The translations under genes were made by a program, and so were the position numbers. Positions 415-63,845 of a stretch of 64,000 bases of DNA are shown piece after piece. Under the pieces are notes generated by a model. That model made no database searches, had not been told where the DNA came from, and worked only from the letters and a program-made list of their open reading frames with translations. The DNA is from a virus, in the IMG/VR virus record IMGVR_UViG_3300031566_000001, positions 1-64,000 of that record; one strand, given 5' to 3'. Position 1 is the stretch's first letter. Each line of letters begins with the position of its first letter.

Positions 415-443
415 TTGACAAGCTGCTGGCTTTGTTGTATATT
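415..443 (+). promoter_or_regulatory. Sigma70-type promoter for structured RNA A / HNH gene
   Basis: Perfect -35 TTGACA (415-420), 17-bp spacer, and -10 TATATT (438-443). The expected start of transcription, about 449-451, falls on the first base of the pseudoknot RNA at 450. The same arrangement is repeated at 62283-62311. Confidence 0.85.
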
Positions 444-449
444 GATAGT

Positions 450-546
450 GCTACTGACAGCCACGGCTTTTTTGATTCAGAATAATAGGGGCCATGCGAG
501 AAGCCGGGCTAGTCAGTAGCAGACGGCAAGGCAAAGCGTGGCCCTT
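450..546 (+). ncRNA. Structured RNA A: H-type pseudoknot leader upstream of HNH gene
   Basis: Stem 1 pairs 450-458 (GCTACTGAC) with 512-520 (GTCAGTAGC) and extends through 459-469 with 501-510, with one bulged A on each side. The loop carries AGGGGCCATGC (487-497), which pairs outside the stem with GCGTGGCCCTT (536-546, two G-U pairs), making a pseudoknot. Between the strands lies ACGGCAAGGCAA, nearly identical in copy B at 62318-62407. Compensatory changes between the copies (for example C492-G541 here, U-A there; U455-A515 here, A-U there) support the fold. Function is unknown. Candidates are an RNA regulator, a put-like antitermination leader, or a guide/scaffold RNA for the downstream nuclease. 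Confidence 0.75.
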
Positions 547-552
547 ATGATT

Positions 553-614
553 GGGGGTGCGGGTAGCCCTCCGATGCCGTTGAGTCCTAAGGTCAACTTG
601 GCACCCGCATCCCC
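553..614 (+). promoter_or_regulatory. Long hairpin between RNA A and the HNH ribosome site
   Basis: GGGGGTGCGGGT (553-564) pairs with ACCCGCATCCCC (603-614): 12 base pairs with one G-U. An inner TTGA/TCAA stem sits in the loop. The hairpin ends 4 bases before the AGGGAG ribosome site (619-624), so it could modulate translation of the HNH gene. Copy B of the RNA has no equivalent stem. Confidence 0.5.
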
Positions 615-629
615 ATGAAGGGAGCAACA

Positions 630-1334
630 ATGAATTCACTCTGCGAGTGTGGTTGTGGCGAGCGGGTGAGCAAGCCAGGGAACCGGTTTGTCCTTGGGCA
701 CAACTGGCGTGGAAAGAGTGGCCCTAATACCCCCAACTGGCAGGGCGGCAAAAGGGAACTGGCTTGCCTCTTCTGTGGCGAGACGATTCTTCGGAAGAGG
801 AATCAGGCCGGCAAGTATAGCAAGCACTTCTGCCACATAGTATGCCGTGCCCAGTGGCTATCGGAAAATCGGACTGGCCGCAGCAATCCTGCTTGGACAG
901 GTGGCCCAATCGAAGTGAACTGCGCCGTCTGCGGTGAGACCATCCTCCGGACGAAGTATCAAGCCGACAGGTGTAGCGACCACTTCTGCGATATGGCGTG
1001 CAAAGCCCAGTGGCTATCGGAAAACCTGATTGGCCCCAACACTCCCAACTGGCAGGGCGGCAAGTCTTTTGAGCCGTATGGACTGGGGTTCAATGACGCA
1101 CTGAGATTGGCTGTCCGAGAACGCGATGAGTTCACTTGCCAACTGTGCGCCGTGCGGGAGAATGGCCGGGCGCATGACTGCCACCACGCGGACTATGTGA
1201 AAGTGAACAACGATCCTGAGAATCTTACTACGCTGTGTCAGGACTGTCATCGGAGAACGAACTACAACCGGGCCTTTTGGACGAACCTATTTCAAGCGCA
1301 GGTGAAGTTGAATGAATGGAGCTACCGGACCTGA
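630..1334 (+). CDS. NUMOD3/HNH homing-type endonuclease
   Basis: A 234-residue predicted DNA-cutting mobile-gene product. ATG 630 is preferred over ATG 615 because AGGGAG (619-624) is correctly spaced before it. Visible parts in order: an N-terminal CECGCGE Cys cluster, three NUMOD3-like DNA-binding repeats (GPNTPNWQGGK and variants), two tandem Cys zinc-finger repeats (CLFCGETILR... and CAVCGETILR...), then a C-terminal HNH nuclease (CQLC, DCHHAD, NLTTLCQDCH). Homing endonucleases of this kind spread themselves between phages. It sits next to the terminase genes, a common homing target, and downstream of a structured RNA. It looks intact. I see no intron splice core around it. Confidence 0.85.
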   Translation: MNSLCECGCGERVSKPGNRFVLGHNWRGKSGPNTPNWQGGKRELACLFCGETILRKRNQAGKYSKHFCHIVCRAQWLSENRTGRSNPAWTGGPIEVNCAVCGETILRTKYQADRCSDHFCDMACKAQWLSENLIGPNTPNWQGGKSFEPYGLGFNDALRLAVRERDEFTCQLCAVRENGRAHDCHHADYVKVNNDPENLTTLCQDCHRRTNYNRAFWTNLFQAQVKLNEWSYRT

Positions 1335-1337
1335 ATA

Positions 1338-1400
1338 TAAGGGCGCGGTGAGGCCTCGGGTAGACTGGAACCCATGTGCCCCGTTGCCCCCGCGCCCTTA
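1338..1400 (+). terminator. Stem-loop after HNH gene
   Basis: TAAGGGCGCGG (1338-1348) pairs perfectly with CCGCGCCCTTA (1390-1400) around a 41-base loop holding a GGGT/ACCC stem. It begins just after the HNH stop codon. There is no U tract, so it may be an mRNA 3' end, a processing structure or the edge of the mobile unit rather than an intrinsic terminator. Confidence 0.45.
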
Positions 1401-1447
1401 GAAATGTCGGTTCGATAGTTCAAGGTCATGGTGAATAGAATATAGAC

Positions 1448-1476
1448 TTGACAAACCCCTAAAGCTACTGTATACT
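1448..1476 (+). promoter_or_regulatory. Sigma70-type promoter upstream of nuclease-like gene
   Basis: TTGACA (1448-1453), 17-bp spacer, TATACT (1471-1476). The transcript would start near 1483. The leader up to 1545 can form a CTACCC/GGGTGG hairpin but does not match the pseudoknot RNA at 450. Confidence 0.8.
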
Positions 1477-1544
1477 ATTACGGATATCCCTGTCTACCCG
1501 GACGATGGGTGGGCGGGGCTTTGTCGTATATGGGGAAGAATCAG

Positions 1545-62226: not shown

Positions 62227-62260
62227 CTTTTGCTCCCAAAAGGTTTTAGCGATCTATAAT
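62227..62260 (+). promoter_or_regulatory. Operator/promoter site 7
   Basis: CTTTTGCTCCCAAAAG (62227-62242), then TATAAT (62255-62260), with 19 bp between TTGCTC and the -10. Near-identical to site 3. It lies 23 bases before the separate consensus promoter of RNA B. Confidence 0.75.
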
Positions 62261-62282
62261 GAGTGAGTGAAGTAAATGAGGC

Positions 62283-62311
62283 TTGACAAACCGGAAGGAA
62301 TCTGCTATACT
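62283..62311 (+). promoter_or_regulatory. Sigma70-type promoter for RNA B / tnpB
   Basis: TTGACA (62283-62288), 17-bp spacer, TATACT (62306-62311). The start of transcription near 62318 coincides with the first base of RNA B, as in copy A. Confidence 0.88.
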
Positions 62312-62317
62312 GATAAT

Positions 62318-62407
62318 GCTACAGGTGCGGCGTGGTTGTTTTGTTATAGAAGGGGTCATGCAGGCCACGCGCACCTGTAGCGGGACGCAAGGCAATGTGT
62401 GACCCCT
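62318..62407 (+). ncRNA. Structured RNA B: pseudoknot leader upstream of tnpB
   Basis: Stem 1 pairs 62318-62328 (GCTACAGGTGC) with 62371-62381 (GCACCTGTAGC) and continues through 62329-62335 with 62365-62370, with one bulged G. The loop element AGGGGTCATGC (62351-62361) pairs with GTGTGACCCCT (62397-62407), completing the pseudoknot. The joining strand GGGACGCAAGGCAA matches AGACGGCAAGGCAA in copy A. The tnpB start lies 13 bases downstream. TnpB guide RNAs normally come from the 3' end of tnpB, so a 5' RNA is not the standard arrangement. Confidence 0.75.
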
Positions 62408-62420
62408 TTGACATAGGGCG

Positions 62421-63632
62421 ATGATTGTACAGAAGAGCCATAGGATACAACTGAGACCCAACAATGAGCACCGAAGCGGTTTCAACCGCTGGGTTGGTGC
62501 TTACCGTTGGACCTACAACTGGGCGCTAGAACAGAAGAAGACAGCCTATGAGCAAGAGGGCAAGTCACTGAGTAAGTACGATGTGCAGAAACTCTTGACT
62601 ATTGAGAAACACACGCTGGAAAGGGCGTGGCTCAATGATATCCTGCGAGACACGCTTGTCAATGCAATATGGAACATGGACAGGGCATACCAGAACTTCT
62701 TCCGGCGGGTCAAGAATGGAGAGGCCAAAAAGGGTTTCCCAAAGTTCAAGTCAAGACGGACGGCGCGGCGCGTTTTCCACGTCACGGCGTACCTCGTGCA
62801 ATTGAGCGAAGACCGACGGAGCGTCAAGTTGCCTAAACTTGGATGGGTTAGGATGAGCAAGGCCCTGCGATTTGAGGGCAAGATGGTTGGGACAGTGGCT
62901 GTCAGTGAAGAGGCGGGGCGGTGGTATGCATCCTTCGTCGTTGAGACTGAGATACCCGATCCTCCGGATCGTAGTGCTGACCCTGTGGTGGGCATCGACG
63001 TCGGTATCAAAACGCTAATGACGCTTTCTGATGGGAAGCGATATGAGAATCCAAAGGCTACCTATGAGCTAGAGAAGCTACTGGCGCGGTCACAGCGCCA
63101 ACTATCCCGCAAGACTAAGGGGAGTAAGCGGCGGGCTAGGGCAAAGCTGAGAGTCCAGCGGATACAGAAGCGCATCAAGGATACACGGGTGAACGCGGCG
63201 CACCAAGCCACGGCGGAGGTGGTAAGGGACTATGGACTGGTGGCTATGGAGGACTTGAATGTCAAAGGCATGGTCAAGAATCGTCACTTGGCAAAGGCCG
63301 TGTCAGACTCCAATTTCAATCGGTTACGCCAGCAGTTGACGTACAAGACCGCGTGGAGCGGCAGTGAACTGAGGTTTGTGGACCGTTGGTTCCCGTCCAG
63401 TAAGCTGTGCTCCGAGTGCGGTTGCATCAATGATAATCTGACGCTTTCAGATAGGAGGTGGACTTGCGATTGTGGGGCTGTTCATGACAGGGACCTAAAC
63501 GCTGCCCAGAACATTCTTGCGGCGGCGCTAAAGTTGGCCGACGAATCGGCGGTCACTGGGCGTGGAGGGATAGGGGCCTTAAGTCCTCCCGATGAAGCGT
63601 CAAGCGGGCAGCAGGAGGTTTTAGATGCATAG
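62421..63632 (+). CDS. tnpB: TnpB-type RNA-guided nuclease (IS605 OrfB family), no TnpA
   Basis: 403 residues, complete. RuvC-like acids: Asp193 in VGIDVGIKTL, Glu277 in AMEDLNVKGM, and the terminal Asp in VHDRDLNAAQNIL. Zinc ribbon CSECGCI...CDCG precedes the last motif. The N-terminal AYRWTYNWALEQKKTAYEQ is typical. TnpB proteins are RNA-guided DNA nucleases, ancestors of Cas12, that maintain their element. No tnpA transposase is present, so this is a lone copy that may act as a homing-type gene in the phage. The ribosome site is weak (AGGGCG). Confidence 0.92.
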   Translation: MIVQKSHRIQLRPNNEHRSGFNRWVGAYRWTYNWALEQKKTAYEQEGKSLSKYDVQKLLTIEKHTLERAWLNDILRDTLVNAIWNMDRAYQNFFRRVKNGEAKKGFPKFKSRRTARRVFHVTAYLVQLSEDRRSVKLPKLGWVRMSKALRFEGKMVGTVAVSEEAGRWYASFVVETEIPDPPDRSADPVVGIDVGIKTLMTLSDGKRYENPKATYELEKLLARSQRQLSRKTKGSKRRARAKLRVQRIQKRIKDTRVNAAHQATAEVVRDYGLVAMEDLNVKGMVKNRHLAKAVSDSNFNRLRQQLTYKTAWSGSELRFVDRWFPSSKLCSECGCINDNLTLSDRRWTCDCGAVHDRDLNAAQNILAAALKLADESAVTGRGGIGALSPPDEASSGQQEVLDA

Positions 63633-63692: not shown

Positions 63693-63845
63693 GTGCACCC
63701 CATGCGCATGTGGGGGATTCGTCCGGTCGCCGGCACTCCAGGAAGGCTCCGAAGCGTGCACCCCATGCGCATGTGGGGGATTCGTACATCATGCAAAAGG
63801 GGCTTGCCGTGGTGGCGTGCACCCCATGGGCGTATGGGGGATTCG
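63693..63845 (+). CRISPR. Mini CRISPR-like array, 3 repeats and 2 spacers
   Basis: A 29-base palindromic repeat starting GTGCACCCCATGCGCATG (then TGGGGGATTCG) at 63693-63721 and identically at 63756-63784; a third copy at 63817-63845 has three changes, all in the centre. Spacers are 34 bases (63722-63755) and 32 bases (63785-63816) and are unlike each other. Repeat length, CCCC..GGGG dyad and spacer size resemble type I-E arrays, and the degenerate last repeat is usual at an array end. No cas gene lies in the window. Confidence 0.78.

What the first reader, a model, noticed from the sequence alone, without database searches (positions are those of the whole stretch)
450..546. A covarying pseudoknot RNA occurs twice, each at +1 of a perfect promoter and leading into a nuclease gene (copy A)
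Copy A (450-546) and copy B (62318-62407) share the architecture long stem, loop strand AGGGGnCATGC, closing strand, ACG(G)CAAGGCAA joiner, and downstream strand pairing back into the loop. Stem sequences differ but pairing is kept (U455-A515 versus A-U; A457-U513 versus G-C; C458-G512 versus U-A; C492-G541 versus U-A). Both begin exactly where transcription should start from TTGACA-17-TATAxT. The genes behind them, NUMOD3/HNH and TnpB, are unrelated except that both are mobile nucleases. I do not recognise it as a named RNA family. Possibilities are a put-like antitermination leader, a shared regulator of selfish genes, or a scaffold/guide RNA.
Basis: partly seen in the sequence, partly recalled or inferred. 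Interest (0 to 1): 0.88.

Follow-up and report, generated by a model that had tools for sequence, protein, structure and literature searches.

The report
Portable pseudoknot leader of phage nucleases
Several phage 'selfish' DNA-cutting genes of unrelated types each begin with their own strong promoter followed by the same kind of knotted RNA, which looks like a transferable control switch at the start of their messages; its exact action is not shown.

Summary
Copies A (449-548) and B (62317-62409) each start 6 nt after a TTGACA-17-TATAnT promoter. They form a long 5'-terminal stem (P1) plus a loop-to-downstream helix (P2). P2 beats shuffles in A and B (0-2 of 3000). I found three more copies. 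B' lies in the sister phage joined into this record. Copies C and D lie in an unrelated phage (IMG/VR 3300033141_004211), each in front of tnpB.

B and B' are identical for about 775 of 790 bp and differ only in a 15-nt patch covering the joiner and P2's 3' strand. All three P2 changes keep pairing. The C-G pair of A is U-A in B and U-G in B'. Rfam has no match.

A TnpB tree forces at least two separate associations, and the HNH gene is a third, so promoter plus RNA is a portable module. TnpB's own guide RNA lies at the gene's 3' end (weak Rfam matches), so a scaffold/guide role is unlikely. put-like antitermination is not supported structurally, nor excluded.

Best reading: a cis-acting pseudoknotted 5' leader controlling expression of mobile nucleases, like the RNA leaders of T4-type homing endonucleases but a different fold. 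The mechanism is inferred, not shown.

The parts
415..443 (+). sigma70-type promoter of copy A (TTGACA, 17 nt, TATATT)
450..520 (+). copy A stem P1 (450-458/512-520, 460-462/507-509, 464-469/501-506), 5'-terminal
485..497 (+). copy A P2 5' strand (loop strand AUAGGGGCCAUGC)
521..535 (+). copy A joiner (AGACGGCAAGGCAAA)
536..548 (+). copy A P2 3' strand (GCGUGGCCCUUAU), pairs with 485-497
553..614 (+). further hairpin between pseudoknot and HNH gene (arms 553-564 and 603-614)
   Evidence: sequence
630..1334 (+). HNH endonuclease gene behind copy A (alternative start 615)
415..1447 (+). inserted cassette: promoter + RNA A + HNH gene, between two TTGACA boxes; absent from two related phages
62283..62311 (+). 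sigma70-type promoter of copy B (TTGACA, 17 nt, TATACT)
62318..62381 (+). copy B stem P1 (62318-62328/62371-62381 and 62330-62337/62363-62370), 5'-terminal
62349..62362 (+). copy B P2 5' strand (GAAGGGGUCAUGCA)
62388..62402 (+). 15-nt patch holding all differences between B and B' in a stretch of about 790 bp
62396..62409 (+). copy B P2 3' strand (UGUGUGACCCCUUU), pairs with 62349-62362
62421..63632 (+). tnpB gene (403 aa; OrfB_IS605, TNB and HTH domains), 11 nt after P2
63594..63660 (+). candidate omegaRNA at tnpB 3' end (Rfam Transposase-2, 21.5 bits, below cut-off, E 0.92)

Best explanation
The element is a cis-acting, pseudoknotted 5' leader of the nuclease mRNA. It is built into a portable 'promoter + leader + nuclease' cassette that phages carry for free-standing homing-type nucleases (HNH, TnpB). 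Shown: the fold, its position next to the promoter, and re-use in front of at least three different nuclease coding sequences. Inferred: the leader folds as soon as it is made. The 5'-terminal P1 closes the mRNA end and shields it from end-dependent decay. P2 and a small hairpin over the ribosome-binding site set how much, or when, nuclease is translated. The nuclease is thus made at a limited level from its own host-type promoter wherever the cassette lands.
For: P1 starts 5-6 nt after the -10 box in all five copies. Pairing is kept through complete sequence change in P1 and P2. Helices hold 14 G-U and 0 A-C pairs, and the sense strand folds better than antisense in 5 of 5 copies, which points to selection on the transcript (helices were found allowing G-U, so the count is biased). 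B and B' differ only in a patch that preserves P2. Every copy lies directly before a nuclease gene on the same strand. Two separate TnpB lineages plus HNH carry it. P2 ends 11-19 nt before the start codon in the TnpB copies. A mini-hairpin covers the SD-like region in 4 of 4 genes against 38 of 141 control genes. Structured leaders on phage homing-nuclease genes are an established kind (I-TevI, segB, mobE, seg43: PMC2988022).
Against: In copy A the pseudoknot ends 66-81 nt before the start codon, so RBS masking cannot be the same in all copies. The RBS-hairpin test was post hoc. P2 of C and D taken alone is only marginal against shuffles (75-102 and 185-488 of 3000). There are no transcript or expression data. 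If the leader only stabilised mRNA, a pseudoknot would hardly be needed.
Confidence: 0.5

Rival explanations
1. C4-like antisense unit: the leader is cut off the mRNA and its loop strand pairs, in cis or in trans, with the P2 target upstream of the RBS of its own or a sister nuclease mRNA, silencing it.
For: In phage G002 nuclease genes have the same layout (TTGACA promoter, then leader RNA), and one leader matches Rfam c4-2 (32.9 bits, E 1.2e-4, below the cut-off of 41). The loop strand of A (AGGGGCCAUGC) is a perfect Watson-Crick complement of the P2 target of B' (GCAUGGCCCCU), so cross-pairing is possible.
Against: The copies themselves do not match c4 families and the fold differs (hairpin plus pseudoknot). 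In A the target lies far from the start codon. No processing evidence.
Confidence: 0.17
2. put-like antiterminator: the nascent RNA binds RNA polymerase and lets it pass terminators or pauses downstream.
For: Located directly after a sigma70 promoter, as putL is (PMC9378689). Several other promoters of G001 and G002 are followed by terminators. The U-rich loop and purine joiner could form triples, as in put stem I.
Against: put is about 73 nt with two stem-loops and no pseudoknot. No common terminator was found downstream of the copies. Only nuclease genes carry it, not the early operons.
Confidence: 0.13
3. A second scaffold/tracr-like RNA that works with the nuclease protein.
For: Directly next to tnpB; pseudoknots occur in guide scaffolds; a CRISPR-like mini-array follows tnpB.
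Against: The omegaRNA candidate is at the 3' end of tnpB in B, C and D. Copy A serves a zinc-finger HNH protein with no RuvC part. Most phage TnpBs examined lack the 5' RNA.
Confidence: 0.06
4. A DNA-level element (transposon end or recombination hairpin) rather than an RNA.
For: It lies at the left edge of the mobile cassettes, and breakpoints lie near the promoter.
Against: Wobble pairs all favour the sense strand. Spacing to the promoter is fixed. P2 covaries through U-G.
Confidence: 0.06
5. Chance or ordinary inverted repeats; C and D unrelated to A and B.
For: C and D share architecture but little sequence with A and B; their P2 alone is weak.
Against: Top 4 of 1372 promoter sites; B/B' pattern; B and D TnpBs are 52% identical and form one clade, so a shared leader is expected.
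Confidence: 0.08

Closest known systems
RNA leaders of T4-type homing endonucleases (I-TevI, T4 segB, Aeh1 mobE, seg43 of Aeromonas phage 25; PMC2988022)
   Same: Structured RNA in front of free-standing or intron-encoded phage homing nucleases, limiting or timing their expression; own promoter nearby
   Different: Those are simple hairpins over or next to the RBS, each specific to its gene. Here a pseudoknot is anchored at +1 and shared by unrelated nucleases and phages
HK022 put RNA (PMC9378689)
   Same: RNA directly downstream of a strong phage promoter
   Different: put has two stem-loops in a V shape, no pseudoknot, and acts on early operons
C4 antisense / c4-2 RNA (Rfam RF01695, RF02944)
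   Same: Phage RNA at the start of an mRNA; a c4-2-like RNA sits in front of a nuclease gene in G002
   Different: No sequence or structure match of our copies to any c4 family
TnpB omegaRNA (Rfam Transposase-2, RAGATH-18) and HEARO
   Same: Structured RNA tied to a mobile nuclease gene
   Different: omegaRNA overlaps the 3' end of tnpB; HEARO (upstream of IscB) gave no match here; copy A has neither TnpB nor IscB

Membership tests
put antiterminator RNA | located just downstream of a phage promoter | tested here: met
put antiterminator RNA | about 70 nt folding as two adjacent stem-loops | tested here: not met
   one long stem plus pseudoknot; put fold from PMC9378689
put antiterminator RNA | suppresses termination and pausing through the RNAP beta' zinc-binding domain | not testable with these tools
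   needs transcription assays
C4 antisense / c4-2 RNA | match to the Rfam covariance models | tested here: not met
   no c4 match at any E-value up to 10 for A, B, D
C4 antisense / c4-2 RNA | released from the mRNA and pairs with the target gene's leader | not testable with these tools
   a P2 target upstream of the RBS exists; processing unknown
TnpB omegaRNA / HEARO | match to Rfam model | tested here: not met
   leader; the 3' ends of tnpB match Transposase-2 or RAGATH-18 weakly instead
TnpB omegaRNA / HEARO | belongs to an RNA-guided nuclease gene in all copies | tested here: not met
   copy A precedes an HNH endonuclease
T4-type homing-nuclease leader (functional kind) | structured RNA in the 5' leader of a phage homing-type nuclease gene | tested here: met
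   homing activity itself not tested
T4-type homing-nuclease leader (functional kind) | structure sequesters the RBS | tested here: inconclusive
   small SD hairpins 4 of 4 vs 27% of controls, post hoc; main pseudoknot does not cover the SD
T4-type homing-nuclease leader (functional kind) | leader changes nuclease expression during infection | not testable with these tools
   no expression data

The most novel reading that the evidence does not exclude
A previously undescribed RNA family that travels between unrelated phage nuclease genes as a common control module. Through interchangeable P2 strands, leaders of one cassette can also act on the mRNAs of others, so that co-resident selfish nucleases regulate or silence each other.
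Probability: 0.15. Interest if true: 0.8.

Novelty: new variant of a known kind. Interest (0 to 1): 0.5.

Why it matters
Regulation of mobile nucleases in phages is known mainly from T4-like phages, where each gene has its own hairpin. A single knotted leader recruited by HNH and by two TnpB lineages suggests that expression control is itself a transferable part of selfish cassettes, and that compact RNA-guided nucleases in phages are under leader control. It gives a defined element of about 100 nt for reporter and structure-probing tests.

Tried and rejected
Pattern scan of IMG/VR for the A/B motif: 87 stretches, all chance or coding except contigs of these same phages. Relatives of the three TnpBs and of HNH in viral contigs, and of the window's TnpB in bacterial genomes: no further leader. 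400 genomes of the phylum of Thermoflexus: 12 genomes with motif matches; the eight sites that were read show no P1 plus P2. Terminase relatives: two contigs, one the same phage Q and one with an empty A site. A third helix P3 (GCGG/CCGC, GGCGG/CCGCC) fits C and D; its U-rich/purine counterpart in A and B is weak, so I do not claim it as general. MAFFT misaligned the five RNAs, so no covariance model was built. RBS switch by mutual exclusion of P2 and an SD hairpin fits only B. The idea that P2 followed by U's is a terminator fits only C and D.

Full report
What is there. Copy A and copy B are real and have the described anatomy. Each starts 6 nt after the -10 box of a consensus promoter. P1 is a stem of 18-19 pairs that closes the 5' end. 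The loop strand pairs over 13-14 bp with a strand that starts 15 nt (A) or 14 nt (B) behind P1 (P2), giving an H-type pseudoknot with an unusually long first stem. P2 is far better than shuffled controls in A, B and B'.

More copies. The window belongs to a virus record of 143 kb that reads as two related phages of about 70 kb each, here called P and Q. Other IMG/VR contigs run from P-left through tnpB into P-right, and a third contig carries Q sequence on its own, so this record crosses from P to Q and back inside tnpB, most simply an assembly crossover in an identical stretch. Q carries a third copy, B', in front of the same tnpB. Between 62263 and 63052, B and B' differ only in 62388-62402, that is, in the joiner and part of the P2 3' strand. 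The three changes in P2 convert G-U to G-C, U-G to U-A and U-A to U-G. At one pair A has C-G, B has U-A and B' has U-G, the expected intermediate of a compensatory change. The patch of B' resembles A, so it was probably exchanged with an A-like RNA.

Distant copies. The nearest relatives of this TnpB include two in a phage of no detectable terminase kinship (G001). Both have TTGACA-17-TATAnT, a 5'-terminal stem of 12-15 pairs and a loop-downstream helix interrupted by a 2x2 internal loop (copies C and D). The TnpB behind D is 52% identical to that behind B, the one behind C 40%. A scan for promoter + P1 + P2 over 474 loci ranks these four RNAs first, with a clear gap. Taken alone, P2 of C and D is only marginal against shuffles, so their kinship rests on position, architecture and the kinship of B and D.

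A portable module. In the TnpB tree, B/B'/D form one clade and C sits beside an IS607-type TnpB of the same phage that has a resolvase gene upstream and no RNA; well-supported branches force two changes. Copy A and its HNH gene are an insertion of about 1 kb between two TTGACA boxes, absent from phage Q and from a third relative. Promoter plus RNA has therefore been joined to at least three different nuclease genes.

What it does. No common terminator, and no fixed distance to the start codon, unites the copies; the fixed anchor is the transcription start. In the three TnpB leaders P2 ends 11-19 nt before the start codon, in A 66-81 nt. A small hairpin over the SD-like region is present in all four genes against 27% of controls (post hoc). 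The choice that fits best is a cis leader that protects the mRNA end and limits or times nuclease translation, as structured leaders do for T4-type homing nucleases (PMC2988022). This step is inferred. TnpB's own guide RNA candidate is at the 3' end of its gene, so the 5' RNA is an addition to it, not the omegaRNA.

Comparison. Rfam has no family for it. put differs in fold. A c4-2-like RNA stands at the same place, between a TTGACA promoter and an endonuclease-VII-like gene, in the TnpB-bearing phage G002. That makes an antisense or processed role a serious rival, and suggests that RNA leaders on nuclease cassettes may be common in such phages.

Limits. Sample: five copies, four independent, from two phage groups. 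No transcripts. Host unknown.

Noticed in passing
window 63693-63845; G000 137489-137762: CRISPR-like mini-arrays (29-nt repeat GTGCACCCCATGCGCATGTGGGGGATTCG, 31-34 nt spacers) directly behind tnpB and its omegaRNA candidate; phages P and Q have the same repeat and different spacers. Two spacers searched have no convincing hit in known phages.
   Followed up: partly
L204 17600-17929 and L205 19847-20000 (G002): An omegaRNA-like scaffold sequence (CTGTGGAG...GTGAAGCAGGAACC) is followed by CRISPR-like repeats directly upstream of tnpB, and again as an orphan with its own promoter at G002:39847. Possibly a TnpB-to-CRISPR transitional arrangement.
   Followed up: partly
L204 9772-11745 (G002): Two endonuclease-VII/HNH-like genes each behind a TTGACA promoter and a leader closed by a 12-bp stem with a U-rich 3' end; the first matches Rfam c4-2 below cut-off.
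   Followed up: partly
window 1448-1520, G000 77842-77910, L344 2004-2075: Another promoter with a conserved GC-rich leader hairpin (CCCCGTCTACCC/GGGTGGGCGGGG plus CTTTG) upstream of the small gene(s) before the terminase gene.
   Followed up: no
G000 whole record, crossover around window 62403-63052: The 143-kb record joins two related phages through identical tnpB sequence; the last kilobase of the window belongs to the other phage. Probable assembly crossover.
   Followed up: yes
window 62229-62262: Palindrome CTTTTGCTCCCAAAAG followed by TATAATGAG upstream of promoter B; a similar element occurs elsewhere (L348 18800), perhaps a phage-type promoter.
   Followed up: no
window 63183-63242: A second dense patch of differences between the two tnpB copies, suggesting mosaic exchange with a further tnpB.
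   Followed up: no
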